From a virus, in the IMG/VR virus record IMGVR_UViG_3300032331_002448, positions 20,150 through 84,149 of that record: DNA of 64,000 nucleotides; one strand, 5' to 3'. The translations under genes and the position numbers were made by a program. Below are positions 31,008 through 46,919 of this stretch, one piece after another. The notes beneath the pieces are model-generated. The model was not told the origin of the DNA, did not search any database, and saw nothing but the letters and a program-made list of their open reading frames with translations. How positions within the stretch are numbered: position 1 is the first letter of the stretch; each line of letters opens with the position of its first letter.

Positions 31008-31008
31008 G

Positions 31009-31194: not shown

Positions 31195-31196
31195 TC

Positions 31197-31529: not shown

Positions 31530-31570
31530 GTAGCACCGTAAAGTACGCTTACAAGTTACAAGACCCTCCA

Positions 31571-31882
31571 ATGAACCTGTTCACTGCCATGGAAAACAAA
31601 CAACAATCACGAGAAACCAAATTGCGTTCTTCTTACTCTGCAAAGCTGAGCACTGTCCTTGAGATCATGAAGGATCTTTCAGCTCAAAGTTTGTTCATCG
31701 ACTGCATCACTTCAGATCAAGAGGCAAACATTGATGCCACCATTGAATTTATTACAGCAGTAAAGAATCAAGTGGATCCTGTCTTCTTTACTTCAAACCT
31801 GAACCTTGCTCTTGCCGAACAGGATCAGAAATTTAAGGAGGATCAGGAAGCATGGGAGCAAAAGCTTGATCAACCTATGTGA
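31571..31882 (+). CDS. helical unknown protein, 103 aa
   Basis: Begins MNLFTAMENKQQSRETKLRS; the second ATG (MENKQQ) is an alternative start. Mostly alpha-helical and charged. Function unknown. Confidence 0.65.
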   Translation: MNLFTAMENKQQSRETKLRSSYSAKLSTVLEIMKDLSAQSLFIDCITSDQEANIDATIEFITAVKNQVDPVFFTSNLNLALAEQDQKFKEDQEAWEQKLDQPM

Positions 31883-31962
31883 TCATTAACAAAATCTAAA
31901 GAGATGAACTGGGTCCTAAGCATGACCCATCAAAAAAGGCTTGTTCTTTGCATGAAACTATC

Positions 31963-32145
31963 ATGTTCTACACCTCGGCTCAGTTCCTGTCAGCTATCAA
32001 TCAACTGAAGCTCATCAACCAGATGACAGGATCTTACGTTCAGCCTACGGTTAACGTTGAGCAGTTCATGAAACCTTTTAACTGCCCGCCTGCCCCTAAG
32101 CTGCACGATTGGCTGCCTGATCTTGATCAACACAACAACTTCTGA
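31963..32145 (+). CDS. unknown protein, 60 aa
   Basis: Start at MFYTSAQFLSAINQLKLINQ, 20 nt after GTTCTTTGC, the leader motif seen before other genes here; upstream TTG is not used. Pro-rich C-terminus (PFNCPPAPKLHDWLPDLDQ). Function unknown. Confidence 0.65.
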   Translation: MFYTSAQFLSAINQLKLINQMTGSYVQPTVNVEQFMKPFNCPPAPKLHDWLPDLDQHNNF

Positions 32146-32148
32146 TCA

Positions 32149-32376
32149 GTGCCAGCAAGAAATTACTGGAGGCAGTACGCACTATTTAAAAGTAGTGTGT
32201 ACGCAGTCAACAGTATCACATCAGTTCTAGTGGTCCTATTTGCTATGGACCACATTTTTTTTAACCGTTCACTCAAAGGATTGAAGCCATGGCAGGTTGC
32301 ATTGCTCGTCGAGCGCATACCTAAAATGCTTTCAACTCTGCAACAAACCTTTACAAAAACTAGGAGGTATCATTGA
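32149..32376 (+). CDS. single-helix membrane protein, 75 aa (GTG start), holin candidate
   Basis: Begins MPARNYWRQYALFKSSVYAV (GTG). A hydrophobic segment at about 19-36 (AVNSITSVLVVLFAMDHIFF), then a basic amphipathic tail. It could be a one-helix holin for the endolysin at 26726, but that rests only on topology. Last gene before a strong terminator. Confidence 0.6.
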   Translation: MPARNYWRQYALFKSSVYAVNSITSVLVVLFAMDHIFFNRSLKGLKPWQVALLVERIPKMLSTLQQTFTKTRRYH

Positions 32377-32416
32377 CGGCAAATTAAGAAAGCTTTAATG
32401 ATTTCACTGGTATAGA

Positions 32417-32453
32417 AGAGGTTCCATCACTACGGTAAAGGAGCCTCTTTTTT
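32417..32453 (+). terminator. strong intrinsic terminator
   Basis: AGAGGTTCC (32417-32425) pairs with GGAGCCTCT (32440-32448), nine pairs with one G-U, followed by six T. Ends the plus-strand unit from 25.4 kb. Confidence 0.85.
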
Positions 32454-32543
32454 CAGTGGTGCCAATGGTTTTAAGAACTACAAAGACCTGGACTCAGCAA
32501 GGTTTCTTCCCCGCATAATAAGATACCGGGAAGTAAATAAACC

Positions 32544-32711
32544 ATGGAAAACACCACAGAAAACGCAACAAAACTTGCTTGGGCAGTTCTTGTTAAAGGA
32601 GCCAACGGAAGGAGTGAAGTTATTAAAGTTACCAACCACGAGGATGCTGATCAAACGATCCTAAGTAATCCTCAAATGTTCTACAAGTCTGGTCCTTTTG
32701 TTTTAAAGTAA
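32544..32711 (+). CDS. small unknown protein, 55 aa
   Basis: Begins MENTTENATKLAWAVLVKGA; two-strand, one-helix plan (SEVIKVTNHEDADQTI) and a strand at the end (YKSGPFVLK), as in other short phage accessory proteins here. First gene after the terminator; stop overlaps the next start (TAATG). Confidence 0.65.
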   Translation: MENTTENATKLAWAVLVKGANGRSEVIKVTNHEDADQTILSNPQMFYKSGPFVLK

Positions 32712-33100
32712 TGCTTGATTCCCAAATAGAAACACTTTGGCAAGAGTCTTTAAACACCTCCAGGATACCTGTTCAGGGTGGAATGTCTCAAACCTATGAT
32801 CCTATTAAAGTTTTTGCTAAAAAGATTGCTGAGTATCTTGTTGATCAAACAGCAGATCCTGTTTCAAAGGATCAAATTAGAAAAGCTTGTGGACTCTTTG
32901 AAAGGTCAAGTGTAGTTGTTTCTACCGTTAATGGCAAAAGTTTTGAGGTGAAAGATGCAGTAGTTCTTACTCATGAGCATTTAACTGAACAAGAATGGAG
33001 AAACTATAACAGTGCTGCTCCAATGGAAAGGCGTGCAATCGCTAAAGACAGAGGAACTCCTTTGAAGCAACTAATACAATTAGATACCCTGCTACGGTAA
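32711..33100 (+). CDS. unknown protein, 129 aa
   Basis: Begins MLDSQIETLWQESLNTSRIP. Helical with an internal strand segment (SSVVVSTVNGKSFEVKDAVV). Coupled to the 55-aa gene upstream. No motif recognised. Confidence 0.68.
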   Translation: MLDSQIETLWQESLNTSRIPVQGGMSQTYDPIKVFAKKIAEYLVDQTADPVSKDQIRKACGLFERSSVVVSTVNGKSFEVKDAVVLTHEHLTEQEWRNYNSAAPMERRAIAKDRGTPLKQLIQLDTLLR

Positions 33101-33141
33101 CTTACAATACAATTTTCAAAAAACCCAAAACTTTTCAAACA

Positions 33142-33333
33142 ATGAAAATTCCAGTCACCGGCTACGTTGTCATGATGCACCACCAGGATCTTGGTACGTT
33201 TGCGCCAGCATTCAGAACCATTGACGAAGCTGAGGAATTTTCTAATGCCATGAAGCTCGGGTCAACCTTTATGGTTGCAGAAGCTGTTCCAATTGTTCAG
33301 ACAATTACCAGTACAGAGTACGTTACTCACTGA
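33142..33333 (+). CDS. small unknown protein, 63 aa
   Basis: Begins MKIPVTGYVVMMHHQDLGTF. Strand, DEAEEFSNAM helix, strand: the common short accessory fold. Function unknown. Confidence 0.68.
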   Translation: MKIPVTGYVVMMHHQDLGTFAPAFRTIDEAEEFSNAMKLGSTFMVAEAVPIVQTITSTEYVTH

Positions 33334-33390
33334 TCAAACTTAATAAGAGTAACGCTGTGGTATCTTTTAGGTACTGCAGCTTTTTTGTAC

Positions 33391-33648
33391 ATGGCCATTG
33401 TTGTTAGCGTGTCTGTACCAGATGAACTTGCTACTCGTTGGCAGGAATCTGATCTGGACATCAGCCCTTCACGTTTATTTCAAACTGCATTAGAGACCGA
33501 ACTCAATAAATCCAATCAGCATCTTACTTATTGGAGTACACGTGCTCTTAATGCAGAGAAAAAACTGAAGGCAATCGCTCAACTTGCCAATGCCAATGAC
33601 AAAACCATCAAGAAATTCTTGATGATGGACACGTTAAATAAAGATTGA
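33391..33648 (+). CDS. ribbon-helix-helix-like protein, 85 aa
   Basis: Start at MAIVVSVSVPDELATRWQES. VSVSVPDELATRW followed by ISPSRLFQTALETEL fits the ribbon-helix-helix pattern (strand, helix, turn, helix) of CcdA/ParD-type DNA binders; the C-terminal third is a coiled coil. Could be a regulator of phage genes. No toxin partner adjacent. Confidence 0.65.
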   Translation: MAIVVSVSVPDELATRWQESDLDISPSRLFQTALETELNKSNQHLTYWSTRALNAEKKLKAIAQLANANDKTIKKFLMMDTLNKD

Positions 33649-33920
33649 GTTAAAAAAATGACTCAATTTGTAAGTGGTATCACTCCCGCCAGGGGGTAAC
33701 CACCACCAAAGGCTATATCTATTAAATAAACTAATACATAATCAATAAACAATAACAACTAACAATCAACCAATAAAAAAGCCAAGGGCACTACTCCTTG
33801 GCTCAGTTGCTTTGCACACACACACCAGGGGACCATGCTCCCCTCTTGCATTTTACCTGTTTACAGCTACACTATCCATGCAGGCGTGGCCACACGCTGC
33901 ACACACCTCTTCGTTTCCTC
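33649..33920 (+). other. non-coding leader region with A-rich tract and hairpins
   Basis: 33710-33780 is A-rich and almost free of G. It is followed by a 7-pair stem (33781-33802), a stem AGGGG/CCCCT near 33830-33846 and GCGTG-GCCA-CACGC near 33882-33896. The next gene starts at 33921. The G-poor tract could be an unwinding site or unstructured leader. Confidence 0.5.
33775..33802 (-). terminator. terminator-like hairpin for minus-strand transcripts
   Basis: On the minus strand GCCAAGG pairs CCTTGGC (33781-33787 with 33796-33802) and is followed by six T. No minus-strand gene lies upstream of it for several kb, so it would stop antisense transcription. Confidence 0.55.
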
Positions 33921-34358
33921 ATGAGCCCCTTCAACTTCCGTTCTGTCCAGTCCCTTGAGCTGTCCAATGATGACAACCCGACGGTCACGATCAAGGACAA
34001 CATCCTTGTGCTGACTGCTACCAGGGGGACTGAGCAGATTCAGATCACCACGCCGATCAAGTTTTCTACGATCATTCAGAACACAGTGACGGCGCCAGTG
34101 CGTCACCGTGATTACTCCAGCCGTAGGGGTGTTCCTATTGCTGGTGGAGACAAGCGTGCCGGAGAGAAAAATAAGATGGCAAAGCTTACGGATTCTGCTG
34201 TTCGTGAAATTCGCATGATCCTTGCCGATGAAGGCATGGTGAAGAAGTATCCAAATAAAAGTGCTCTGTATCAAGATATTGCAAAAGCTTATGGTGTTCA
34301 CATGTACACCATTAAAAATGTAGCAACCAACGTTAGCTGGAAGCACATCAGTATTTGA
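33921..34358 (+). CDS. HTH protein of homing-module type, 145 aa
   Basis: Start at MSPFNFRSVQSLELSNDDNP. Residues 1-70 beta-rich; residues 85-145 carry KLTDSAVREIRMILADEG, DIAKAYGVHMYTIKNV and a WKHI ending, the DNA-binding HTH found at the C-terminus of many HNH homing endonucleases. No nuclease domain is present. First of four consecutive DNA-binding module genes. Confidence 0.7.
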   Translation: MSPFNFRSVQSLELSNDDNPTVTIKDNILVLTATRGTEQIQITTPIKFSTIIQNTVTAPVRHRDYSSRRGVPIAGGDKRAGEKNKMAKLTDSAVREIRMILADEGMVKKYPNKSALYQDIAKAYGVHMYTIKNVATNVSWKHISI

Positions 34359-34359
34359 T

Positions 34360-34728
34360 ATGAACACTTACCTCTTTCGTGTTCAGCTTGGTGATGGCAA
34401 GCCAGTAGAAGCTCCTATCAAAGCGAAAGATGTAGTGACGGCAGTTACAGCAGGGTATCGCCAGTACCCTGCTGCCAGGAACCTGCATCTTATTTCTGTT
34501 ATTCATCCTGATCCGCCCGAACCAGTTGTGTACCCTGATCTAATCGAGGAATCTCACCCTTTGTTTGGTGATTCAGTTATCAGTGTAAAGAACAGGTCTC
34601 CTGATACTAAAGAGAAAATTAAGGAGGCTATTGCTCTTCGATGGAAAGGTTTGAATTACAGACAGATCGGAAAAGAACTTAATGTTCCTGCCCGTCGTGT
34701 TTCTTCTTGGCTCAATCAGTATTGTTAA
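34360..34728 (+). CDS. HTH protein, 122 aa
   Basis: Begins MNTYLFRVQLGDGKPVEAPI. N-terminal beta part; residues 80-120 (TKEKIKEAIALRWKGLNYRQ, IGKELNVPARRVSSWLNQ) form a homeodomain-like HTH. One base after the previous gene. Likely regulator or targeting module. Confidence 0.7.
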   Translation: MNTYLFRVQLGDGKPVEAPIKAKDVVTAVTAGYRQYPAARNLHLISVIHPDPPEPVVYPDLIEESHPLFGDSVISVKNRSPDTKEKIKEAIALRWKGLNYRQIGKELNVPARRVSSWLNQYC

Positions 34729-34732
34729 TCCT

Positions 34733-35062
34733 ATGGCTGTTAAATGTCCTGAGTGTCAACAACTGAATAACCGGACTCTAGAAGTTAGAGTTTTGAATGA
34801 CGACACTGCAGTCAGGCGGCGTAAGCTCTGCAAGGACTGTGGCGCCAGGTGGACAACCTACGAACGTTATGAAATTCCTTACAACTTTAATGTTTGTGGT
34901 TCTAAGAATCACAACTCAGTTCTCTTAGAAAAAAACATAAGAGATATACGTAAGGAGTTTCATGAAGGAACAAGTTGTTTAGAACTTTCTCGTAAGTACG
35001 GTGTTAGTCAGTCAACAATAAGTCGGATTATCCGGCGTGTTACCTGGGGCCATGTTGCATGA
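34733..35062 (+). CDS. NrdR-like zinc ribbon plus HTH, 109 aa
   Basis: Start at MAVKCPECQQLNNRTLEVRV. CPEC and CKDCGARWTTYERYE match the zinc ribbon of NrdR (RRRxxCxxCgxRxTTyE). The NrdR ATP-cone is absent; instead residues 70-105 carry SRKYGVSQSTISRIIRRVTW, an HTH of the homing type. A recombined DNA-binding protein, unlikely to be a true ribonucleotide reductase repressor. Confidence 0.75.
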   Translation: MAVKCPECQQLNNRTLEVRVLNDDTAVRRRKLCKDCGARWTTYERYEIPYNFNVCGSKNHNSVLLEKNIRDIRKEFHEGTSCLELSRKYGVSQSTISRIIRRVTWGHVA

Positions 35063-35337
35063 CGGAACCTAAGATCAGTAGTTACTATCGTAACAAAGAT
35101 GATGAAGTAAGTTATTACTTATCATTGGTTAAGAGGCCACTAAAGAAAAACAAAACAAGCAAGTACAGAGGAGTTTGTTATCTTAAACCTAGGAATCTGT
35201 ACTCAGCTCGTTTGGATTTTAAAGGCCGTAAGTATTATTTAGGTGCTTTTAAAACTGAAGACAAAGCTGCAATTGCTTGGAACAATGCTGCTCTTAAAAT
35301 CATTGGACCTCATGTTCCTTTGAATGTTATTGAGTAA
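35059..35337 (+). CDS. AP2-domain protein, 92 aa
   Basis: Residues 33-90: SKYRGVCYLKPRNLYSARLD, GRKYYLGAFKTEDKAAIAW form a full AP2/ERF DNA-binding domain (YRGV, WxA-like R/L, G.F.....AA.A). In phages these usually belong to HNH homing endonucleases; here the HNH part is missing. Overlaps the previous gene by 4 nt. Confidence 0.82.
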   Translation: MTEPKISSYYRNKDDEVSYYLSLVKRPLKKNKTSKYRGVCYLKPRNLYSARLDFKGRKYYLGAFKTEDKAAIAWNNAALKIIGPHVPLNVIE

Positions 35338-35358
35338 AAGTTAAACGATTAATTAATA

Positions 35359-35398
35359 CCCTGGCGTACACAACAGTGTTGTAAGTCCAGGGGTTTTA
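35359..35398 (+). terminator. terminator in front of the ardC-like gene
   Basis: CCCTGG (35359-35364) pairs with CCAGGG (35387-35392), with an inner ACAAC/GTTGT stem, then GTTTTATTTG. The GTTCTTTGC leader follows at 35402. Confidence 0.65.
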
Positions 35399-35419
35399 TT
35401 TGTTCTTTGCACTTCATTA

Positions 35420-36376
35420 ATGACTACCACGCAAGCCAAGCTTCCTAAGGTTCCTGACAAAGCACTCGAAGCTTTGACTCAAGGTATTCAATCTGTTCTT
35501 GATTCAAAAGATTGGGGAGGATTCTTGTCAGCTATCAAACAGATTCATAGCTACAGCTTTAACAATCGACTGCTCATTATGAGTGAGCAATTCAAAAGAG
35601 GCTGGGAGCTTAGTCCGTTTGTTGCTGGCAAAACTAAATGGAATGAGAAGTTTAAGCGCCAGCTGAAAGAGGGAGAATATACAAAACCTATCTGGATTCT
35701 TGCTCCTGTTCTTGTTGACAAGCTTGATGACAATGGCAAGGTAATCTATAAACCAGATGGAACACCTTTCAAGATTGCAATTAGATTCAAAGGTGTGCGT
35801 GTTTATGATCAGCATCAAACGCATGGTGAACCTATTCCTGAGGTAAATACAAATGAAATGATGTCACAATTAACTGGTAATGTGCCAGAGCAATTGTTAA
35901 ATTGCTTTGTTAAAATTGCAAGGCAACGAAGTGTAGATGTTGATATTAATGTAGATACTGCAGCTATGCAAGGTGCATTGGGACGTTGCTGGTTTAAGAA
36001 TGCAGGACGTGCTAGCAAGATTGAATTAGTTCAAGATTTAAATCTTGCAACACAAGTTAGCGTAATGGCACACGAACTTGCTCATGCAATTCTACACAAT
36101 CGTGACGAATATCTTGAGCATGATTCTAGTTCTATTAAAGAGCTGGAGGCAGAATCAGTTGCATATCTTGTTTGCTCTCACTATAATCTCGACCTTGGTA
36201 ATAGAAGCTTTCGGTATATTGTTTATCACAACACTGCATCAGATGATGTTGTTGCAGACCTTTTGAAATCTGGTAGCAGAATTATTACTGCTTACGAAGA
36301 GATCATTGGTAAGGCCGACGCAATGCTTGCACCTGTGTCAAGTTTTGTAACGGATAAAGTTTTGGTTCCAGCTTGA
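35420..36376 (+). CDS. ArdC-like antirestriction protein, 318 aa
   Basis: N-terminal domain (about 1-130) matches the ArdC ssDNA-binding region: SYSFNNRLLIMSEQ, GWELSPFVAGKTKWNEKFKR, ending in IRFKGVRVYDQHQTHGEPIP. C-terminal zincin domain has VMAHELAHAILH (HExxH variant HELAH, near residue 218) and the third ligand in KELEAESVAYLVC. ArdC on plasmids protects incoming single-stranded DNA from restriction; here it would protect phage DNA. Preceded by a terminator and SD-less leader, so it may be expressed separately from its neighbours. Confidence 0.8.
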   Translation: MTTTQAKLPKVPDKALEALTQGIQSVLDSKDWGGFLSAIKQIHSYSFNNRLLIMSEQFKRGWELSPFVAGKTKWNEKFKRQLKEGEYTKPIWILAPVLVDKLDDNGKVIYKPDGTPFKIAIRFKGVRVYDQHQTHGEPIPEVNTNEMMSQLTGNVPEQLLNCFVKIARQRSVDVDINVDTAAMQGALGRCWFKNAGRASKIELVQDLNLATQVSVMAHELAHAILHNRDEYLEHDSSSIKELEAESVAYLVCSHYNLDLGNRSFRYIVYHNTASDDVVADLLKSGSRIITAYEEIIGKADAMLAPVSSFVTDKVLVPA

Positions 36377-36388
36377 CAGTAATCTATG

Positions 36389-36411
36389 CCAGGGAATCCC
36401 CCTGGTTTTTT
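36389..36411 (+). terminator. terminator touching the next start codon
   Basis: CCAGGG (36389-36394) pairs with CCCTGG (36400-36405), then six T to 36411; the next ATG is at 36415. There is no room for a ribosome site between. Confidence 0.75.
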
Positions 36412-36414
36412 CTT

Positions 36415-36753
36415 ATGGCACATTCAATTAACACGCGCTTCATTCCTTCCGAAGAACAGGTAGCTGAATGGCTATCTAAAATCTACGGCATGACATTAAA
36501 TCGTGCTCCATCTATGCAAGAAAAAATGCTTGCAAAGATAGCAGCTGAATGGGGATTGCACCAGAAAGAATCCTATGAAGAATTTCTTTTTTCTGAAGGA
36601 TTATTGACAAGCCAAAAGGTTGTTGATGCTATCAAAAAAGTGGTTATCCCAACAATCAATGCTCATGATACAAAAGAAGAATGGATTACTCTTCTTGATG
36701 AAAAAGATATTTTAGAGATACTTAATGTAGCTATTGATGCCATGAGGGACTGA
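36415..36753 (+). CDS. helical unknown protein, 112 aa
   Basis: Start at MAHSINTRFIPSEEQVAEWL, 3 nt after the T-run of a terminator. All-helical (AKIAAEWGLHQKESYEEFLF). Its expression must rely on read-through or an unusual initiation. TGATG overlap with the next frame. Function unknown. Confidence 0.68.
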   Translation: MAHSINTRFIPSEEQVAEWLSKIYGMTLNRAPSMQEKMLAKIAAEWGLHQKESYEEFLFSEGLLTSQKVVDAIKKVVIPTINAHDTKEEWITLLDEKDILEILNVAIDAMRD

Positions 36754-36842
36754 TGGATTTTTATCATTTGTTTTTAATTTGTGCTGGTTACTGGTTAATT
36801 TGTGCAGCTCTTATTTGCCTTGCTAAATCTATTCTTCCTTGA
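36753..36842 (+). CDS. 29-residue single-helix membrane peptide
   Basis: ATG overlaps the stop of the 112-aa gene (TGATG). Sequence MDFYHLFLICAGYWLICAAL then ICLAKSILP: one transmembrane helix covering the peptide. Translational coupling supports it; a lysis or membrane-modifying role is possible. Confidence 0.5.
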   Translation: MDFYHLFLICAGYWLICAALICLAKSILP

Positions 36843-36851
36843 CACACAATT

Positions 36852-37202
36852 ATGACTGACACCAACAATCCCTACCCGATCACCCCACCGCCTGAGCTGG
36901 TGCAGCAGTGGATCAACGAGGAAGATGGCCTCACTGCGGGGCACATCGCCACCCAAGCCGCTCAATGGGGCGCCGACCAGGAGTTGGAGGCGTGCGTGAG
37001 CTGGTTAATTAAAAACCAGAATCCACGATGGGCTCTCGCCCTTCAAGACGCCCGCTGCCCGAAGCCCCTGAGCTTGAAGGAGCAGGCAATGCGCGTCCTC
37101 GTTGAGAATGGCACCAACTTAGATGGACGCATGGAGCTTGATTCCACCGACATTGAAACTATCCGCAGCGCACTGGAGGCGCTTCCTAATGATCAACATT
37201 GA
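36852..37202 (+). CDS. picocyanobacterial-type accessory protein, 116 aa
   Basis: PITPPPELVQQW, AAQWGADQELEAC, SLKEQAMRVL and IRSALEALP mark the same family as the gene at 28596. GC-rich, with codon use unlike the AT-rich genes on its left; it opens a block of overlapping genes running to thyX. Function unknown. Confidence 0.82.
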   Translation: MTDTNNPYPITPPPELVQQWINEEDGLTAGHIATQAAQWGADQELEACVSWLIKNQNPRWALALQDARCPKPLSLKEQAMRVLVENGTNLDGRMELDSTDIETIRSALEALPNDQH

Positions 37203-37380
37203 CTCCGATCAAGGCCGCATTGGTGAGCTGTGGTGGATCAATTCCGAGCCCTCAGTCAAGCATCGCGTTGACTTTGGTTTTGACTTTGCTGGTAACCGCG
37301 TTCTTATGAACTTAGTGCGTTGGGGAACCTGCGGCATCGGTCGTGACATTCGTGTTGCAATGGAGCCGGTCAATGACTGA
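37189..37380 (+). CDS. unknown protein, 63 aa
   Basis: Start at MINIDSDQGRIGELWWINSE. Beta-rich. DQGRIGELWW resembles DSGNIGRFYW of the 79-aa protein at 28364. Overlaps both neighbours. Function unknown. Confidence 0.7.
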   Translation: MINIDSDQGRIGELWWINSEPSVKHRVDFGFDFAGNRVLMNLVRWGTCGIGRDIRVAMEPVND

Positions 37381-37708
37381 CCTTTCACCACAAGCGCAGG
37401 CGGTGCTGGATACTGTGCGAGAAATCTGTCCTGCACCGGCTGACGAAATTGCCGCCGCCGCCCTTCGTGCTGCTGCGGATCAGGTGGTGCCGGGATGGCC
37501 GTGCGGCAACGACTGTTGTATAACCACCTGCGAGCAAATCCGTGCTGACTTCCTTGCCATCGCCGCCGAGCTTACCGCTCCAACATTGATGGAACGCGCC
37601 TTAGCTGGCGACAAGGACGCTGCCAGGCAGTTTCTTTTTGAAGCTGGCTTCACTGACGAGCACGGCCAACTTACTGGACCTTACAAATCGGAGCAAACTA
37701 ATGACTGA
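37373..37708 (+). CDS. Ala-rich accessory protein, 111 aa
   Basis: Start at MTDLSPQAQAVLDTVREICP. AAAALRAAADQVVP and IRADFLAIAAELT are hallmarks of short picocyanobacterial/phage proteins of unknown role; C-terminus MERALAGDKDAARQFLFEAG looks like an appended helix. GC-rich; ATGA overlap at both ends. Confidence 0.75.
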   Translation: MTDLSPQAQAVLDTVREICPAPADEIAAAALRAAADQVVPGWPCGNDCCITTCEQIRADFLAIAAELTAPTLMERALAGDKDAARQFLFEAGFTDEHGQLTGPYKSEQTND

Positions 37709-37937
37709 TTACCGCGCCCTATGCGAGCAATTGATGGAGTTTGCTGAAGGGAGACGATACGACGGCAGTGCTGTGATAGCCAAAGCCCGTTTCGCCCTAG
37801 CCCAGCCCGAGCCGGTGGCTCCAGTGGCGCCGACTGATGAGGAGCTGATTGACCTTTTTGAAAAAGACTACTGTCACTTCCACATCTGTTCAGAAACTTT
37901 TCTTGACATTGCTCGTTCTGTACTGGAGTTACGATGA
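37701..37937 (+). CDS. small accessory protein, 78 aa
   Basis: Begins MTDYRALCEQLMEFAEGRRY; shares the MTDxRALCxxLLE...LAQPEP layout with the next gene, a paralogue. DEELIDLFEKDYCHFHICSE follows. Function unknown. Confidence 0.75.
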   Translation: MTDYRALCEQLMEFAEGRRYDGSAVIAKARFALAQPEPVAPVAPTDEELIDLFEKDYCHFHICSETFLDIARSVLELR

Positions 37938-38482
37938 CTGACTTTCGAGCGCTGTGCGCTGAGCTTCTTGAGGCATTGGAGAACGCTATTCGCGTGATTT
38001 ACCGCGAAGACGGCACCAAGCACATCAGTACTGCGGATCCCGTTATTGCTAAAGCTGATGCCGCCCTGGCCCAGCCCGAGCCGCAGGGGTTGACAAACGA
38101 AGAGATTGAAGAAGCGGCAAAGCTGATTCACGCCTCAATGCGTTTTGCCGTTCCTGACAACCATTACACCAGTGACTGGGTAGAGCATGGCAACTCGCTA
38201 ATGCAAGACGAAGCTAGAAGGACTGCCCGCGCCGTCCTGGCCCGCTGGGGCCGCTTTGCCATCGAGCCGGTGCCGGTGAGTGAGCGCCTGCCGGGGCCGG
38301 AGGATTGCGATGCGGAGGGGCGGTGTTGGGTCTACTGGACCAGGGGCACGCGCTGGGTACTTGACCACTGGATAGACGAGGACTTTGAACAATTTTTGGC
38401 CGAACCTTTAGTGGAAGGTGCTATTTCCCACTGGCTCCCCCATTGGGCGCTGCCGGTGCCGCAGCAGAAGGCAGGTCAATGA
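37934..38482 (+). CDS. accessory protein with DUF551-like C-terminus, 182 aa
   Basis: N-terminal part parallels the 78-aa neighbour (MTDFRALCAELLEALE, LAQPEPQGLTNEE). Then WGRFAIEPVPVSERLPGPED, CWVYWTRGTRWVLD and ISHWLPHWALPVP, the pattern VSERLP...W...HWLPxxxLP of DUF551 proteins common in phages and picocyanobacteria. Role unknown. GC-rich. Confidence 0.8.
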   Translation: MTDFRALCAELLEALENAIRVIYREDGTKHISTADPVIAKADAALAQPEPQGLTNEEIEEAAKLIHASMRFAVPDNHYTSDWVEHGNSLMQDEARRTARAVLARWGRFAIEPVPVSERLPGPEDCDAEGRCWVYWTRGTRWVLDHWIDEDFEQFLAEPLVEGAISHWLPHWALPVPQQKAGQ

Positions 38483-38763
38483 AAGCGCCACGGCCTGAGC
38501 CCGATTACCGCCCTGGAATGCGGGAGTACGTCCAATGGGAGAAGGAGTGGAAGGAGAACGGCTCCACTGGGTCGTTCCAGCTATTCCTTATGGACAAGGC
38601 TGCGGACTATGCAGCAGACGTTGAGATGCGGCTGTGGTCTGGGATGCTGAGTGGCGTGGGCTTCATGCACATTGCCGCCACCTACGAGAGGGAGCGCAGG
38701 CCTGTTCCGCCCAAGCCTGAGATCCAGCACAACGGTTTTACCTATCGCCTTGTTGAAGAATGA
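38479..38763 (+). CDS. unknown accessory protein, 94 aa
   Basis: Start at MKAPRPEPDYRPGMREYVQW, overlapping the previous stop. Charged, Trp-rich; ends NGFTYRLVEE. GC-rich block; overlaps thyX by 4 nt, so it is translated with it. Confidence 0.7.
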   Translation: MKAPRPEPDYRPGMREYVQWEKEWKENGSTGSFQLFLMDKAADYAADVEMRLWSGMLSGVGFMHIAATYERERRPVPPKPEIQHNGFTYRLVEE

Positions 38764-39386
38764 CAACCACCTTTGTTCACTGCACGCCAAACGCTGAGCA
38801 GCTTATCGTCAAGATGGCCAGGGTGAGCAACCCAGCCAACGCCGACAATACCGCGACAGCGCCAAAGCTGCTGCGGTACTTGATCAACCACAAGCACTGG
38901 TCGCCATTTGAAATGACGAGTCTGTGCATCAAGATCGACACCGAGCGCGACATTGCTGCTCAGATTCTCAGGCACAGATCGTTCAGCTTCCAGGAGTTCA
39001 GCACCCGCTATGCCAAGACCATGCTGGCTGAGATCCCTGCACTGCGTCGGCAAGACACTAACAACCGCCAGAACAGCATCGACGACTTGCCAGATGCGGT
39101 GATTGCTGAGATGAACCGCAGAATGTGCGTCCTATTAATAGATGCTCACCGGCTGTATCAGGACATGCTGGATCTTGATGTAGCTAAGGAGACGGCACGC
39201 CGTATCCTGCCGCTATGTACTCCGACCACGATCTACATGCACGGCACCCTGCGCAGCTGGTTGCATTACATCGAGGTTCGCACTGGCCCTGAAACCCAGC
39301 TGGAACACCGGCTGATTGCTGAAGGTTGCCGGGCAATTTTTGCTAAACAGTTTCCTATTATCGCCGAGGCCGCTTTCCTTGATTGA
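38760..39386 (+). CDS. thyX: flavin-dependent thymidylate synthase ThyX, 208 aa
   Basis: RHRSFSFQEFSTRY (about residues 74-87) is the ThyX signature RHRxxSxxExSxRY; further motifs are RVSNPANADN near the N-terminus, YIEVRTGPETQLEHR near residue 175. It makes dTMP from dUMP with FAD and methylene-tetrahydrofolate, supplying phage DNA synthesis together with the dCMP deaminase at 43893. Length is normal. GC-rich like the genes before it, pointing to a shared origin for the block. Confidence 0.95.
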   Translation: MTTTFVHCTPNAEQLIVKMARVSNPANADNTATAPKLLRYLINHKHWSPFEMTSLCIKIDTERDIAAQILRHRSFSFQEFSTRYAKTMLAEIPALRRQDTNNRQNSIDDLPDAVIAEMNRRMCVLLIDAHRLYQDMLDLDVAKETARRILPLCTPTTIYMHGTLRSWLHYIEVRTGPETQLEHRLIAEGCRAIFAKQFPIIAEAAFLD

Positions 39387-39414
39387 TTTAATTACTCCTT
39401 AATTTACTAAACAA

Positions 39415-39711
39415 ATGCCTAAAGGATTTGGTCCTCCGCCTAAGTACAAAACAAAACAACTTTGGGTTTCTCTTTATAGTCAAGACAATGAAGATGAACC
39501 CATGGAAGTTAAACGTTTACAGGTTCCATTTCTGCCAGGGCAGAACCCTGTAGAAAAAGCAAGGGATCAAGCACGTCTCTGGATGAATGAAAATTCAAAC
39601 ATCTGGGATGTGCTGATCTATGACGGCCCTGATCAAGAGCCAACTAGCGGTGACGCTATCTTGGTTCGGATGTGTCGGGAACCTTTTAATGAGTGTGTAC
39701 AGCTTCAGTAA
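39415..39711 (+). CDS. unknown protein, 98 aa
   Basis: Begins MPKGFGPPPKYKTKQLWVSL. Beta-rich, basic N-terminus, acidic C-terminal half (YDGPDQEPTSGDAILVRMCR). AT-rich again, so outside the GC-rich block. Function unknown. Confidence 0.7.
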   Translation: MPKGFGPPPKYKTKQLWVSLYSQDNEDEPMEVKRLQVPFLPGQNPVEKARDQARLWMNENSNIWDVLIYDGPDQEPTSGDAILVRMCREPFNECVQLQ

Positions 39712-39787
39712 TTGTTGTCTGTGTAAGTCATTCTTTAAAAAGATAGGGTGGGACTTCACCGTGATCAGCGGCAAAGTCCTTCAGTTG

Positions 39788-39824
39788 CCAGGTAGGGGAA
39801 GCGATAAAAACCCTACCTCCCTGG
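39788..39824. promoter_or_regulatory. stable hairpin in a 177-nt non-coding gap
   Basis: AGGTAGGG (39790-39797) pairs with CCCTACCT (39811-39818), extended by CC/GG outside a small bulge. No clear T-run on either strand. The gap 39712-39888 holds nothing else convincing. Confidence 0.55.
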
Positions 39825-39888
39825 TAAAAAGACCCTGACATCGCTCTTCTTCGGGCCTCAATTATTCTACCACCTTTTAAAACAAACC

Positions 39889-40050
39889 ATGAACAAGTAC
39901 ACAGCACCAACTATTGTTCTGCTTTTGTGGATGATACTTACTTTTGTTTTTCTTGTAAACCCTCACCTATCAGGCAGATATCTTGCTGTCTGCAACATCT
40001 GCATTTACGTTGGTTCTTTGCTTATGCTTTGGAATGACCAAGATTCTTGA
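39889..40050 (+). CDS. two-helix membrane protein, 53 aa
   Basis: Begins MNKYTAPTIVLLLWMILTFV; two hydrophobic helices (about 8-25 and 32-46) with a short polar loop. Topology fits a small holin-like protein, but no family is recognised. Confidence 0.62.
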   Translation: MNKYTAPTIVLLLWMILTFVFLVNPHLSGRYLAVCNICIYVGSLLMLWNDQDS

Positions 40051-40294
40051 CCCTAGAGAGCGGCCTAATGCTTGGCTTCGTTCTGTTCTTCTTGATTGTT
40101 TAGAAGATCAGGATCCAGAGTCGAAAGCAATGCTCCAGTATGCCATTGATCAACTAAGTCAATGGATAGAACCTGGCTTAATAGATTCATTGTTTCATCC
40201 ATGGATAACTGCGTACCTTGAACTTTTGGATGAATCCGAAAAGAATCAAAGTAACGCAGGTCCAGAGTGTTTGCTAGAGGATCTTCAGGAATAA
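40034..40294 (+). CDS. acidic unknown protein, 86 aa, antisense to the next minus gene
   Basis: Start at MTKILDPRERPNAWLRSVLL. Helical, acidic (LLDCLEDQDPESKAMLQYAI, YLELLDESEKN). Overlaps the 53-aa gene by 17 nt and lies opposite the 3' 230 nt of the minus-strand 231-aa gene. Its composition is protein-like, yet one of the two overlapping frames may be spurious. Confidence 0.5.
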   Translation: MTKILDPRERPNAWLRSVLLDCLEDQDPESKAMLQYAIDQLSQWIEPGLIDSLFHPWITAYLELLDESEKNQSNAGPECLLEDLQE

Positions 40295-40757
40295 CTTTTT
40301 CAATTTTGAATTGATCCCAAATTTGATCCGTTGAATAGGGAGGTCTATACCAATAGAACTTCCTATCAACAAAATCAACCAGCCATTCTGGATGTTGTTT
40401 ATGCCAGCGTAACCAAGCTTTGAATTGCTTGTCAGGTTCTTTTGAGGTGCAATCCAGCATCATGCAATCGCCTGGTTCAATGTTCCAACGCATCCGCAAT
40501 ACTGCATTGAATCCTTCTTTGATTGCTTTGATGCCATTGCGGCCTGTCAATTGATTGTTGAGACTGCGCCAGCGTTTGTTTTTGCGTTTCCAATACCAGT
40601 CATTAATTTGACGTTTGGATTTACCAATAGCAAACCCTACGTTCCATGCCCAAAACCCTGGCAAGTATTCATTGCATGGCTCCAGAAAAACTTTACAAAG
40701 TTGACCGTTAACTTTAAATGTTTGGCTGGTAGTATGCCTGCGTACTCGGTAGGTCAT
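40065..40757 (-). CDS. unknown Trp-rich protein, 230 aa, lone minus-strand gene
   Basis: Start at MTYRVRRHTTSQTFKVNGQL (ATG 40757; a GTG at 40778 is possible). Trp/Tyr/Arg-rich, with NEYLPGFWAWNVGFAIGKSK, ISDWYWKRK-like INDWYWKRKNKRWRSL and FKAWLRWHKQHPEWLVDF. It has no plus-strand competitor from 40295 on, so it is real. The ATG lies 2 nt from the divergent GTG of the next plus gene. Function unknown. Confidence 0.7.
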   Translation of the reverse strand: MTYRVRRHTTSQTFKVNGQLCKVFLEPCNEYLPGFWAWNVGFAIGKSKRQINDWYWKRKNKRWRSLNNQLTGRNGIKAIKEGFNAVLRMRWNIEPGDCMMLDCTSKEPDKQFKAWLRWHKQHPEWLVDFVDRKFYWYRPPYSTDQIWDQFKIEKVIPEDPLANTLDLRYFDSFRIHPKVQGTQLSMDETMNLLSQVLSIDLVDQWHTGALLSTLDPDLLNNQEEQNEAKH

Positions 40758-40759
40758 GT

Positions 40760-41044
40760 GTGGAAGAATTAATTTCACTGATCCAGAACGATCCTGAATT
40801 GTGGGAGATCGTTGATCGGCTTAAGCACCAGGACGAAGACCTGGATGATTTCATCTTGAGCATAGCTCAGATGCTTTCAATGGAGTTTGAAGAATTGCAT
40901 CGAACAGATCTCAGCGATAAACTGAGTGCTCTGTTCGGTGGTTTGCCTCCTACGGCGTTCCGTATGGCACCATTGATGTTGCACATTGCATTGGATATTT
41001 TCTTGATGCGTTCTATTCCTGATCACAATTCAATTCGGGATTGA
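40760..41044 (+). CDS. acidic helical protein, 94 aa (GTG start)
   Basis: Begins MEELISLIQNDPELWEIVDR (GTG). Helical throughout (DFILSIAQMLSMEFEELHRT). Divergent from the gene to its left with start codons 2 nt apart, so each ribosome site lies in the other gene. Function unknown. Confidence 0.62.
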   Translation: MEELISLIQNDPELWEIVDRLKHQDEDLDDFILSIAQMLSMEFEELHRTDLSDKLSALFGGLPPTAFRMAPLMLHIALDIFLMRSIPDHNSIRD

Positions 41045-41047
41045 ACA

Positions 41048-41287
41048 ATGCAAACAGGATTTGTTCTTTGCAGCCCAGATCTTTCTCGGGTTGTGTGTTT
41101 AACGCCAGACAAGAATGGGTTTCAATTAGAGGATGTTGAAAACACTTTAGTGTTGAACCGTGCCATGTGCTTTCACAACCGCACAGAAGCAAAAAACATC
41201 TTAGGTCGCATTGAAGCTCAAGTAAAAAGAGAGTTAGATATTGAAGTTAAAAATATTGCTCTCCTCTACAAAAAGTTTTACGGATGA
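41048..41287 (+). CDS. unknown protein, 79 aa
   Basis: Begins MQTGFVLCSPDLSRVVCLTP. Beta-rich N-terminal half and a helical C-terminus (NILGRIEAQVKRELDIEVKN). Overlaps the DNA polymerase start by 4 nt, so translation is coupled. Confidence 0.7.
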   Translation: MQTGFVLCSPDLSRVVCLTPDKNGFQLEDVENTLVLNRAMCFHNRTEAKNILGRIEAQVKRELDIEVKNIALLYKKFYG

Positions 41288-43896: not shown

Positions 43897-44345
43897 CTCA
43901 CCAGTGGGACCAAAGGTTCATGAAGATTGCTCTTGAAGTTTCTTCATGGAGCAAAGATCCATCAACAAAAGTTGGCTGTGTTCTTGTTAGAGACAAGAAA
44001 GTTATCAGCACTGGTTACAATGGGTTGCCAAAAAACCTGAGTGACAATCTCGACCGATTGATGAATCGAGAAGAGAAGTATGAGATAACAGTACATGCTG
44101 AAGTTAATGCGGTAACTACTGCAGCTCTTCACGGCATCAGCACTGAAGGATGTACTGCTTATGTCACCTTCAACCCTTGTAGCAGATGCGCTGCAGTGTT
44201 GATCAACGCAGGAATCAACTCAGTGTACAGCTATGCTGGAGCTGAAATTCCTGACCGCTGGTTAACAAACTTTATTCTGGCCAGCAAAATCCTTGCTGAA
44301 GCCGGGGTAAGCTACGAAACCATCGACATTCCTGATCACAAATGA
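43893..44345 (+). CDS. dCMP deaminase, 150 aa
   Basis: TVHAEVNAV (about residues 66-74) supplies the zinc His and catalytic Glu; NPCSRCAAVLI (about 99-109) gives the PCxxC zinc ligands; VGCVLVRDKKVISTGYNG is the family's first strand region. Converts dCMP to dUMP, the ThyX substrate. Deaminase families also include tRNA/riboflavin types, but the STKVGCVLV and DNLDR segments suit the deoxycytidylate group. Confidence 0.88.
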   Translation: MTHQWDQRFMKIALEVSSWSKDPSTKVGCVLVRDKKVISTGYNGLPKNLSDNLDRLMNREEKYEITVHAEVNAVTTAALHGISTEGCTAYVTFNPCSRCAAVLINAGINSVYSYAGAEIPDRWLTNFILASKILAEAGVSYETIDIPDHK

Positions 44346-45073
44346 ATCTTCTTCTTGCTACAGGCACCTACACAGGCGACAAGTTCACTGACAACGGCTT
44401 GCGTTTCATGCAAGTTTCTATTCCATCAACAAGCAACAATGGTTTAGCTGCTCCTATTTTTGTTGTTCCAAACAAAGCGGCAGGTGATACTTTTGATAAT
44501 TTCAAAGAGAATACAAATGTATTGATTGGCGGTCGCATTTATGTGAGCCGCCAAGATTACATGGTGTATGTCATGCCAGCACAGCCGGTGCAGTTATCGG
44601 GTAACGTGACAATCAATAAAGTTAATCTTGCTGGTCGTGTTGGTGCAATTCCTGAGCAAACCAGGGATGATCTGTTTAACTTTACCTTGATCTGTCAAGC
44701 ACCAGCTCAACAAGTGCTGGGGCATGACGGTGAGAAAGGTATCGGTTTTAGAATGACAGCTTGGGGTGATGATGCTAAGCGTTTGCGTAGCCGTCTTTAT
44801 GTTGGCCGAGGGATTGCATTGGAAGCAGTCATGAAGTACAACACCTGGACTGATAAAGAAGGAAATACTAAAGGCTCCTATCAGTATCAAGTTAGATCAA
44901 ATATGTATTCAATTTTTGATAAGAGTAAAGAACAAAAAGATCAACAAAATGTAGACAAGGTTGTAACAATGAACTCTAATAAAGAGTTAGAAGTTCGTAC
45001 TGTTGAACCTTATCAAAACATTGCGGCCCGTGTGCCAGTTACGCAAGTGGACGAGGACAGCATTCCTTTCTGA
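44342..45073 (+). CDS. second single-stranded DNA-binding protein, 243 aa
   Basis: Two OB-like halves: residues 1-85 (FMQVSIPSTSNNG, VLIGGRIYVSRQDYMVYVMP) and 88-200 (VTINKVNLAGRVGAIPEQTR, GRGIALEAVMKYNTWTDKEG). The C-terminus DEDSIPF is the acidic-Phe tip by which bacterial SSB recruits partners. Overlaps the deaminase gene by 4 nt. Together with the 155-aa protein at 25459 the phage has two SSB-like proteins. Confidence 0.85.
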   Translation: MNLLLATGTYTGDKFTDNGLRFMQVSIPSTSNNGLAAPIFVVPNKAAGDTFDNFKENTNVLIGGRIYVSRQDYMVYVMPAQPVQLSGNVTINKVNLAGRVGAIPEQTRDDLFNFTLICQAPAQQVLGHDGEKGIGFRMTAWGDDAKRLRSRLYVGRGIALEAVMKYNTWTDKEGNTKGSYQYQVRSNMYSIFDKSKEQKDQQNVDKVVTMNSNKELEVRTVEPYQNIAARVPVTQVDEDSIPF

Positions 45074-45088
45074 AAATTAAAGATTCTT

Positions 45089-45116
45089 AGGGCTTTGCTG
45101 CCAGGAGCACGGCCCT
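45089..45116 (+). promoter_or_regulatory. hairpin after the SSB gene
   Basis: AGGGC (45089-45093) pairs with GCCCT (45112-45116), with an inner TGCT/AGCA stem. Only TTGAT follows, so terminator function is doubtful. Confidence 0.45.
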
Positions 45117-45176
45117 TGATCGTCTAAACTTCTGGAGGTTGATGGGTGCTGTCTTGCAGGAGCGGTACCTTTTTTT

Positions 45177-45243
45177 CCTCAGGCTGGTGCCAGCAACACG
45201 GCGAGGTGTTGTTGTTCAGGTTTGATTCCTGTTCTGGGGACCA
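45177..45243 (+). ncRNA. tRNA-like structure with encoded CCA (degenerate)
   Basis: Acceptor-like stem CCTCAGG (45177-45183) with TCTGGGG (45233-45239), seven pairs with two G-U, followed by A and CCA. A T-arm-like stem CAGG-TTTGATT-CCTG (45217-45231), an anticodon-arm-like stem CAACAC (45194-45199) with GTGTTG (45206-45211), but a D-arm reduced to a CTGG-TG-CCAG hairpin and a 6-nt anticodon loop. Not a standard tRNA; perhaps a decayed one or a mimic in the leader of the next gene. Confidence 0.4.
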
Positions 45244-45261
45244 CTCAACTTCTTGACTGTA

Positions 45262-46182
45262 ATGTCCGTTCTTGATCGTTACCGCAACACTGAAAAGTAC
45301 CAGGGAATCCTGCGTGACTTTTGCAATTGCCAAATCCTGAATGATAAGACCCAGTGTGGTCTTTTCTTGAAGGATAAAGTGTTGTCACGTATCGGTTGGA
45401 CGGGAACTCCTGATATGTTCCCTGACGCCGAAGAGTATTCTCACGTGTACAACAATGGCGACACTGACAAAGGTGTCTTCTTTAAGACCCCACGCATGGT
45501 AGTTCTTCATTGCGGGTTCCGCAAAGATGTAACCTTCATTGAAAACTCTGATAAAGGTGGCATTGAGGGTCTTTATCCCCGTGACTCCTACCTTTATGAC
45601 CAGTGGGAAGAGCAGAATCCTGGCAAGATGAGCCCTTACAAGCGCCGTCGCCTGATTCTCATGTACCTTGTTACTGAGAAAGGTACGCCCGTTCATAAGA
45701 AACCACTGCTTCTTTCTGTGCATGGTGGTGCCAGCAATCTGTTTACAGATGCTTACGGCACTTTCATTGAGCAGCTAGAGAGTGCTTTTGCTGAATGGTC
45801 AGGATCTAAGAGCAGCACTGGATTTGATCCCAAGCAAACTGCTGCTGCAATCTTTACTCCTACTTTTGCATCTCAACTCTACGGTGAAACCCAGAAGAGT
45901 TGGATTGCTTTCCCTAAGCAATGGGTTGTTCCTACTGCCAAAACGGTAGAGAAGTTCTTCCCTTCTACTGACGATGACATTGATTTCATCGAACAGGTTT
46001 GGGAAACCTGCCCACCTGAAGTGTATGCCAAATCTTTCTTTGAACAGACAAACAAAGAGATTGGTGTTCACGCAATCAAGGAAGGTCTTGATTTCAATCT
46101 GCCTCCTCTCCCCAGTTCTGGCTCTAGCTCCCGTGTTCTGATGGGTGCCAGGGACGCAGAAACTGGAGAAATCAGCTTCTGA
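45262..46182 (+). CDS. unknown conserved-type protein, 306 aa
   Basis: Start at MSVLDRYRNTEKYQGILRDF. Has CQILNDKTQCGLFLKDKVLS, FFKTPRMVVLHCG and an acidic middle part, a plan I know from cyanobacterial and cyanophage proteins of unknown role (DUF5895-like, by memory). The C-terminus is flexible (PPLPSSGSSSRVLMGARD). Lies between SSB and replication genes. Confidence 0.65.
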   Translation: MSVLDRYRNTEKYQGILRDFCNCQILNDKTQCGLFLKDKVLSRIGWTGTPDMFPDAEEYSHVYNNGDTDKGVFFKTPRMVVLHCGFRKDVTFIENSDKGGIEGLYPRDSYLYDQWEEQNPGKMSPYKRRRLILMYLVTEKGTPVHKKPLLLSVHGGASNLFTDAYGTFIEQLESAFAEWSGSKSSTGFDPKQTAAAIFTPTFASQLYGETQKSWIAFPKQWVVPTAKTVEKFFPSTDDDIDFIEQVWETCPPEVYAKSFFEQTNKEIGVHAIKEGLDFNLPPLPSSGSSSRVLMGARDAETGEISF

Positions 46183-46190
46183 TAACGTTT

Positions 46191-46217
46191 GGCCAGGTGT
46201 TATGCCTGGCCTTTTTT
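46191..46217 (+). terminator. terminator directly joined to a start codon
   Basis: GGCCAGG (46191-46197) pairs with CCTGGCC (46205-46211), then six T (46212-46217); ATG of the HicA-like gene is the next base (46218). Confidence 0.82.
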
Positions 46218-46406
46218 ATGGCTAACTCTAGTACAGAAATTAAAAAAGCTTTAAAAAAATACGGCTGGACCTTGGCAAGGACAGGATCCAAACATTACAT
46301 CTACACAAATGGAACGACCAACATTACTATTCCATTTGGTGACAAGATTTACAGCCGTAGTTACAAGCACATTCTTTTACAGATCAAAGGTAGAACTTTT
46401 TATTGA
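46218..46406 (+). CDS. HicA-like toxin, 62 aa
   Basis: Start at MANSSTEIKKALKKYGWTLA. EIKKALKKYGWTLARTGSKH and TNITIPFGDKIYSRSYKHIL match HicA (helix, Gly-Ser-x-His catalytic strand, P-x-G/H, final I-L-x-Q helix). HicA is an mRNA interferase with a double-stranded RNA-binding-like fold. No HicB antitoxin is adjacent. Its start codon immediately follows a terminator T-run, so expression should be very low. Confidence 0.75.
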   Translation: MANSSTEIKKALKKYGWTLARTGSKHYIYTNGTTNITIPFGDKIYSRSYKHILLQIKGRTFY

Positions 46407-46423
46407 CAAAAACCAAGTGATGT

Positions 46424-46666
46424 TTACTCTTCATAACGTGTACGAATTGTAGAGGATTCAAGATTAGCTAACCTCTTAACTAATCCTCTAATCATTGACT
46501 GCCGCATAACAGCTAGCTGGAGTAATTTAATTGCTCCGGCTTTTGCTTGTTCAATGTCAGTGACTGCATTAATTTCATTTGTCAGCTTAGTAATTAAGAA
46601 CTCATCCTCTAAGGTGCTTTCAAAATCATTAGGTCCAAATGGAACTTCAATTACATCAAAGGCCAT
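46424..46666 (-). CDS. small helical protein, 80 aa, minus strand
   Basis: Begins MAFDVIEVPFGPNDFESTLE; then a helical stretch (AGAIKLLQLAVMRQSMIRGL). The plan VPFGPxDxESTxxxEFLI...QLAVxRQxxIRGLVKRL resembles a short cyanophage protein family of unknown role. Isolated between two plus-strand genes. Confidence 0.72.
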   Translation of the reverse strand: MAFDVIEVPFGPNDFESTLEDEFLITKLTNEINAVTDIEQAKAGAIKLLQLAVMRQSMIRGLVKRLANLESSTIRTRYEE

Positions 46667-46766
46667 AGAAGCACTGCATGATGTTTACTTTAGCTTTGTG
46701 TAACTTGCTGCCAGTGGTCCCGAGCAGCTGCGGTAAGCTAGGGGCGTCCCTACCTTCCCCCTAACT

Positions 46767-46919
46767 ATGGCAAAAAAGACCTTCAGCGGCAGCGTTCATG
46801 CGCCAGGGCATCCCAAGCGGACGCGGATCGGCAACGGTCTGCGAACCCGTAACCGTGTTTGGACTGGCCGCACTAAACGGTCTAGTCCTCGCAAGGCTTA
46901 CCGGGGTCAGGGGCACTGA
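46767..46919 (+). CDS. very basic protein, 50 aa
   Basis: Begins MAKKTFSGSVHAPGHPKRTR and ends SPRKAYRGQGH. Rich in Arg, Lys and Gly with no acidic residue; the SGSVHAPG and YRGQG ends look like a short conserved family of cyanophages. Likely binds nucleic acid; could be disordered. Confidence 0.68.
   Translation: MAKKTFSGSVHAPGHPKRTRIGNGLRTRNRVWTGRTKRSSPRKAYRGQGH

What the first reader, a model, noticed from the sequence alone, without database searches (positions are those of the whole stretch)
46191..46220. Terminator whose T-run runs straight into a start codon (HicA-like gene)
Seven-pair stem, six T, then ATG with no gap. No ribosome site can exist. The gene codes for a HicA-like RNA nuclease, so this may be a device that keeps a toxic product near zero until read-through or antitermination.
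Basis: partly seen in the sequence, partly recalled or inferred. Interest (0 to 1): 0.62.

Follow-up and report, generated by a model that had tools for sequence, protein, structure and literature searches.

The report
Terminator fused to phage toxin start
In a family of freshwater cyanobacterial viruses, a small gene resembling the RNA-cutting toxin HicA begins right behind a transcription stop signal, and this arrangement recurs in every relative that carries the gene, which suggests (not yet tested) that the gene is switched on only when the stop signal fails.

Summary
In detail: hairpin 46191-46211 (8 pairs, -15.8 kcal/mol), six T, then ATG at 46218 of a 62-aa HicA-like gene. The phage is an uncultured relative of freshwater Synechococcus phage S-EIV1.

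The reading is partly supported. Lack of a Shine-Dalgarno site is not special, because gene starts in this window carry such motifs hardly more often than random sequence. A terminator follows the upstream DUF5895 gene in all relatives, mostly without hicA. But hicA occurs in eight relatives, always directly behind a terminator (start 0-10 nt after the T-run), never with a Shine-Dalgarno site, a sigma70-like promoter or HicB. The tree needs about six gains or losses of hicA. In one sister pair the unit gained or lost is exactly terminator plus hicA, while a second, resident terminator stays. The hicA leader is the most structured 5' region of 89 genes tested. Two other genes in the window have the same leader; one keeps it in 17 of 18 copies.

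Best explanation: a terminator-led toxin cassette expressed by read-through. This works like the terminator ahead of toxN in type III toxin-antitoxin systems, without the antitoxin RNA. Plain genome packing is the main rival. No expression data exist.

The parts
45262..46182 (+). Upstream gene, DUF5895 family (Pfam PF19247); a terminator follows it in nearly every relative
   Evidence: Pfam E 2.4e-14; 23 and then 42 IMG/VR loci, 65-83% identical; terminator found behind it in all but the truncated one
46191..46211 (+). Terminator hairpin GGCCAGG-TGTTATG-CCTGGCC
   Evidence: -15.8 kcal/mol, z -4.3; compensatory changes across eight hicA leaders
46212..46217 (+). U-tract (T6) of the terminator, directly abutting the start codon
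   Evidence: sequence
46218..46406 (+). Orphan HicA-like gene, 62 aa, start ATG 46218, no Shine-Dalgarno
   Evidence: Pfam HicA_toxin above cut-off; AlphaFold/Foldseek HicA fold; seven related loci in IMG/VR; mostly synonymous change in close pairs; no HicB-like antitoxin (PF15919) in seven related records
46424..46666 (-). Convergent NblA-like gene (phycobilisome degradation), 17 nt beyond hicA; overlaps hicA's 3' end in several relatives
   Evidence: Pfam PF04485 E 5e-4, below the curated cut-off; ORFs in relatives
33354..33390 (+). Second terminator-led leader: hairpin, T6, GTAC, then ATG 33391
   Evidence: hairpin kept with covariation in 16 sequences
33391..33648 (+). 85-aa gene led by that terminator; ribbon-helix-helix-like by eye only
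   Evidence: 13 relatives in IMG/VR; no Pfam or PHROG match; fold search negative
36388..36414 (+). Third terminator-led leader: hairpin, T-run, CTT, then ATG 36415 of a 112-aa gene
   Evidence: the gene has no relative in 37 related records

Best explanation
The feature is a terminator-led toxin cassette. An intrinsic terminator is fused to the start codon of an orphan hicA gene in a freshwater cyanophage. RNA polymerase coming from the upstream replication operon (dCMP deaminase, SSB, DUF5895) mostly stops at the T-run. Only the read-through fraction contains hicA, and in that RNA the start codon sits six nucleotides behind a stable hairpin with no Shine-Dalgarno site. HicA output is therefore held low twice, at transcription and at translation initiation, until termination is relaxed (by chance, or by an antitermination or polymerase change later in infection). 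The terminator also ends the upstream operon. Shown: the anatomy, its recurrence in eight loci, lack of a recognisable promoter and of HicB, and joint gain or loss of terminator plus hicA in one sister pair. Inferred: termination and read-through in the cell, low HicA output, RNase activity, timing.
For: Hairpin and T-run are not chance. All eight hicA loci (L049 and L066 are near-copies) begin 0-10 nt behind a terminator T-run, with no Shine-Dalgarno site. Hairpin sequences differ but pairing is kept by compensatory change: 92.9% paired versus 72.7% in shuffles, 9 double-change cells versus 3.0. No sigma70-like promoter within 350 nt and no -10 box placed for a leaderless start in any of the eight. 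The DUF5895 tree needs 6 gains or losses of hicA, at least 5 forced by well-supported branches. L061 reads DUF5895 - terminator 1 - hicA - terminator 2; its sister L055 reads DUF5895 - terminator 2 only, so terminator 1 moves with hicA although a resident terminator exists. None of 8 hicA leaders has the UUCG-type hairpin found in 14 of 26 hicA-less relatives, P = 0.007 without correction for relatedness. hicA has the most structured 30 nt before the start of 89 ATG genes: -15.8 versus mean -2.9, sd 3.2, the opposite of the low structure usual at SD-free starts (PMC3121790). Purifying selection in close pairs (2 synonymous versus 1 non-synonymous codon change; 26 versus 10). Precedent: in type III TA a terminator between antitoxin RNA and toxin gene is suggested to limit toxin mRNA to read-through (PMC8167048; PMC8860590).
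Against: No transcript, read-through or toxicity data. Relatives without hicA keep a terminator at the same place, so the upstream operon alone can explain a terminator there. In those relatives the T-run often runs straight into the nblA-like stop codon, so tight packing against terminators is a habit of these phages. A non-sigma70 phage promoter would be missed by my scan. The terminator-plus-hicA unit is seen cleanly in one pair only. L061's HicA lacks the motif histidine (GGRN), so not every copy need be an active toxin.
Confidence: 0.52

Rival explanations
1. Compact packing only. The hairpin is simply the terminator of the DUF5895 operon; whatever follows (hicA, nblA stop codon, other genes) is packed against it. 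SD-free initiation is normal in this phage, so abutment has no regulatory meaning, and hicA is transcribed from an unrecognised promoter or by ordinary leakage.
For: A terminator follows DUF5895 in relatives without hicA, often abutting the nblA-like stop codon; SD matches at starts hardly exceed random sequence; in the related records (1.08 Mb) 21 of 75 terminators have an ATG-ORF in the first 14 nt versus about 3-6 per later bin (13 in the second), including unrelated genes.
Against: Terminator 1 was gained or lost together with hicA although a resident terminator exists; hairpin type differs with hicA presence, including the sister pair L059/L060; the hairpin sits where structure is normally avoided at SD-free starts (PMC3121790).
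Confidence: 0.32
2. Leaderless or hairpin-internal promoter: transcription of hicA starts inside or at the end of the hairpin, giving a short or leaderless mRNA without the structure, as with T4 gene e late promoters.
For: Leaderless mRNAs are thought frequent in cyanobacteria (PMC5397173); T4 e, soc, 49 and I-TevI work this way (PMC3014915).
Against: No -10-like hexamer at the right distance in any of eight leaders (best 1-3 of 6 matches), and hairpin sequences are not conserved as a promoter would be. Phage-specific late promoters cannot be excluded.
Confidence: 0.08
3. Translational hairpin only: the stem-loop blocks ribosomes on long transcripts (or is bound by a protein) and does not terminate transcription to any useful degree.
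For: Hairpin lies inside the 30S footprint (6 nt from the AUG); the window also holds an endolysin gene whose start codon is buried in a hairpin.
Against: A T-run of at least four T follows the stem in all eight hicA leaders, which translation control would not need; the AUG is outside the stem.
Confidence: 0.08

Closest known systems
Type III toxin-antitoxin loci (ToxIN, AbiQ): terminator between antitoxin RNA and toxin gene
   Same: An intrinsic terminator directly precedes the gene of a small RNA-cutting toxin, so toxin mRNA would be the read-through fraction (PMC8167048, PMC8860590)
   Different: No repeat RNA upstream, toxin is HicA-like rather than ToxN, upstream gene is an ordinary protein gene, T-run touches the start codon
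HicAB type II toxin-antitoxin system
   Same: Toxin matches HicA profile and fold
   Different: No HicB (PF15919) in seven related records, no operon partner, terminator instead of antitoxin as the apparent brake
T4 gene e / soc / 49 / I-TevI inhibitory leader hairpins
   Same: A phage keeps a potentially harmful gene low on long transcripts through a hairpin at the start (PMC3014915)
   Different: Here the start codon is outside the stem, a T-run follows, and no internal promoter is recognisable
Phage morons (single-gene insertions between operons)
   Same: hicA is repeatedly gained or lost at one site between two conserved genes
   Different: From general knowledge a moron brings its own promoter and a downstream terminator; here the terminator is upstream and no promoter is visible
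Synechococcus phage S-EIV1 (KJ410740)
   Same: Closest isolated phage by terminase large subunit, 64% identity
   Different: No DUF5895 or hicA homologue found in the phage collection that holds it

Membership tests
HicA toxin (PF07927) | Profile match above curated cut-off | tested here: met
   32.2 bits versus 27. On the genome search only 1 of 7 related records passed the cut-off, the others matched below it
HicA toxin (PF07927) | dsRBD-like alpha-beta-beta-beta-alpha fold | tested here: met
   AlphaFold secondary structure H-E-E-E-H; top Foldseek hits 6g26, 1whz, 6hpb, 4p78, 4c26, 5yrz, all HicA-type by my reading, at E 0.02-0.2 and TM about 0.6-0.7
HicA toxin (PF07927) | Conserved catalytic histidine | tested here: met
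   G-S-K-H in the window, histidine present in all relatives except L061, GGRN. That this histidine is catalytic is from general knowledge
HicA toxin (PF07927) | Ribonuclease activity and growth arrest | not testable with these tools
   needs expression
HicAB type II TA system | Adjacent HicB antitoxin gene | tested here: not met
   no PF15919 match at E <= 0.1 in seven related records; neighbours are DUF5895 and an NblA-like gene. Records may be fragments and PF05534-type HicB was not searched
Intrinsic terminator | GC-rich stem of 5 or more pairs directly followed by a U-tract | tested here: met
Intrinsic terminator | Releases RNA in the cell | not testable with these tools
   needs RNA-seq or in vitro transcription
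Type III TA (ToxIN-like) | Tandem-repeat antitoxin RNA upstream of the terminator | tested here: not met
   no tandem repeats in 44300-46800
Type III TA (ToxIN-like) | Toxin gene expressed through terminator read-through | not testable with these tools
   anatomy is compatible
T4 gene e-type leader | Start codon or SD inside the stem, late promoter in the 5' arm | tested here: not met
   AUG lies outside the stem; no promoter-like site
Leaderless mRNA | -10 box about 7 nt before the start codon | tested here: not met
   best 1-3 of 6 matches in eight leaders
Known riboswitch or RNA leader (Rfam) | Rfam match above gathering score | tested here: not met
   only SorX, 19 bits versus 46.6, E 0.16

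The most novel reading that the evidence does not exclude
These cyanophages use 'terminator-led' genes as a regulatory class. Small potent host-takeover genes (HicA, an 85-aa putative DNA-binding protein, others) each carry an intrinsic terminator welded to an SD-free start codon, move as terminator-plus-gene cassettes, and are switched on together when the phage makes host RNA polymerase ignore terminators.
Probability: 0.2. Interest if true: 0.75.

Novelty: new variant of a known kind. Interest (0 to 1): 0.5.

Why it matters
Most toxin genes are held by an antitoxin. If confirmed, this would be a toxin held only by a terminator, a simple brake that travels with the gene as one roughly 0.3-kb unit. 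It would also point to terminator read-through as a timing switch in uncultured freshwater cyanophages whose gene control has apparently not been studied, and it supplies an easy reporter assay.

Tried and rejected
(1) Protein search with the window's HicA alone or with two sequences found at most one relative; the DUF5895 neighbour was the productive anchor. (2) An N-terminal extension read through the hairpin (GTG 46197): excluded as a general start by in-frame stops in L018 and L078; L066 alone has an ATG before the hairpin and a GTG after it. (3) A seven-codon reading frame from the loop ATG (46202-46225) overlapping the hicA start: the relatives' loops have no such ATG. (4) A split ribosome site as in T4 gene 25: no consistent SD just before the hicA hairpins, judged by eye. 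(5) RNA antitoxin repeats: none. (6) Known RNA family: none. (7) HicB-like antitoxin elsewhere: none by PF15919. (8) The 85-aa protein as a ribbon-helix-helix factor: sequence suggestive, but Pfam and the fold search gave nothing. (9) The PDB sequence search with the HicA profile hit mainly designed coiled coils and a Lokiarchaeota hit covered 25 residues; both ignored. (10) The third terminator-led gene (36415) has no relatives to compare.

Full report
What is there. The window is 20150-84149 of an 84,149-base IMG/VR virus record. Its terminase is 64% identical to that of Synechococcus phage S-EIV1, the only close isolate, and an NblA-like gene also points to a cyanophage. The hairpin, six T and ATG are exactly as described. 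The stem has eight pairs by RNAfold, -15.8 kcal/mol, z -4.3. Strong terminators are rare in this genome: seven in 84 kb by my scan, almost none in shuffles.

The gene. ORF 46218-46406 (62 aa) matches the HicA toxin family above Pfam's cut-off and the PHROG toxin family 353. Its predicted structure (pLDDT 82) has HicA toxins from several bacteria as best matches in the PDB, at modest E-values. The GSKH motif with the histidine is present. Close relatives differ mainly at synonymous sites. No HicB-like partner (PF15919) was found in seven related records. It is therefore an orphan HicA-like protein; that it is toxic is inferred.

Relatives. The phage collection holds no relative of HicA or of the upstream gene. 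Using the upstream DUF5895 gene as anchor gave 23 and then 42 IMG/VR loci. A terminator follows that gene in all of them except one truncated contig. In most, hicA is absent, and in many of these the T-run abuts the stop codon of the convergent nblA-like gene. hicA is present in the window and in L018, L049, L050, L060, L061, L066 and L078 (L049 and L066 are near-copies). In every one it lies between DUF5895 and the nblA-like gene, and its start is 0 (window), 1, 1, 3, 3, 3, about 10 and 10 nt behind the T-run. None has a Shine-Dalgarno site.

Is the missing ribosome site special? No. Shine-Dalgarno matches at called starts in the window hardly exceed those in random sequence (my gene calls are crude), and only about half of cyanobacterial genes have one (PMC3121790). 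What is special is the structure. Of 89 ATG genes in the window, hicA has the most stable fold in the 30 nt before its start, whereas SD-free starts in other genomes are notably unstructured (PMC3121790; PMC5397173).

Whose terminator is it? Both readings have support. A terminator at this place is kept without hicA, so the upstream operon uses one. But the hairpin changes with hicA. On the DUF5895 tree hicA presence needs six gains or losses, at least five forced. In the sister pair L055/L061, L061 has terminator 1, hicA, then terminator 2, while L055 has only terminator 2, right after the DUF5895 stop. So terminator 1 and hicA were gained or lost as one unit. In the pair L059/L060 the hicA-bearing member has a different hairpin from its sister. 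Across the set, none of eight hicA leaders has the UUCG-type hairpin that 14 of 26 hicA-less loci have (P 0.007, not corrected for relatedness). Pairing is kept through compensatory change.

Is it only hicA? No. Two other strong terminators of the window run into start codons: one before an 85-aa gene at 33391 and one before a 112-aa gene at 36415. The 85-aa gene keeps hairpin, T-run and start in 17 of the 18 copies inspected, with a conserved and covarying stem. Its upstream neighbour is also conserved in 17 of 18, so there too the hairpin could serve the gene before it. Over the related records fetched (1.08 Mb, 75 terminators) an ATG with an open frame of at least 40 codons falls in the first 14 nt after the T-run 21 times, against 3-6 times per later 14-nt bin apart from 13 in the second. 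These counts include related sequences and are not independent.

Most likely mechanism. With no sigma70-like promoter in 350 nt upstream of any of the eight genes, and no -10 box placed for a leaderless start, hicA mRNA most simply arises when polymerase from the upstream operon reads through the terminator. The same hairpin then sits within the ribosome footprint. This would keep HicA low until termination is relaxed. The transcriptional part resembles the terminator before toxN in type III toxin-antitoxin loci, and the translational part the T4 gene e leader; it is a member of neither class on the features tested. The steps 'terminates', 'is read through', 'is toxic' and 'is timed' are inferred.

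Limits. All sequences are from metagenomes, gene calls are mine, promoter scans cover only the sigma70 type, and the unit gain or loss is clean in one pair. The main rival, simple packing against a useful terminator, remains likely (about one in three).

Noticed in passing
window 26701-26728 (+), gene 26726-27352: An endolysin gene (PHROG 28234, E 1.5e-44) has its start codon buried in a perfect 10-pair hairpin, ATGGTGCCAG-tgtttct-CTGGCACCAT (-20.4 kcal/mol for the 51-nt region, z -4.3). It resembles the T4 lysozyme gene e leader. The one close homologue (L153) shows at most a weak stem there.
   Followed up: partly
window 33354-33648: 85-aa gene with a conserved, covarying terminator-like hairpin fused to its start in 17 of 18 phages. 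The palindrome GTGCTATC...GGTAGCAC could also be a DNA operator, since the protein looks ribbon-helix-helix-like by eye.
   Followed up: partly
window 46424-46666 (-): NblA-like protein (phycobilisome degradation) convergent with hicA; in several relatives the two genes overlap at their 3' ends, so nblA transcription would run antisense into hicA.
   Followed up: no
L049 946-994 and L066 2926-2973: Near-identical phages with swapped start codons: GTG before and ATG after the hairpin in one, ATG before and GTG after in the other.
   Followed up: no
L061 2968-3189: HicA copy that lost the conserved motif histidine (GGRN), possibly inactive.
   Followed up: no
window 23500-41100 (+): A motif TTGTTCTTTGC recurs (13 matches with up to one mismatch in the window versus 3.7 expected), several copies about 10-20 nt before small-gene starts; perhaps an early promoter or leader element.
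   Followed up: partly
window 45180-45243 (+): Sequence resembling the T-arm and acceptor end of a tRNA (GTTCAGGTTTGATTCCTG...GGGGACCA) upstream of DUF5895; not called by ARAGORN or Rfam.
   Followed up: partly
L018 3925-3990: Two tandem terminator-like hairpins before hicA, perhaps a resident one plus the cassette's own.
   Followed up: no
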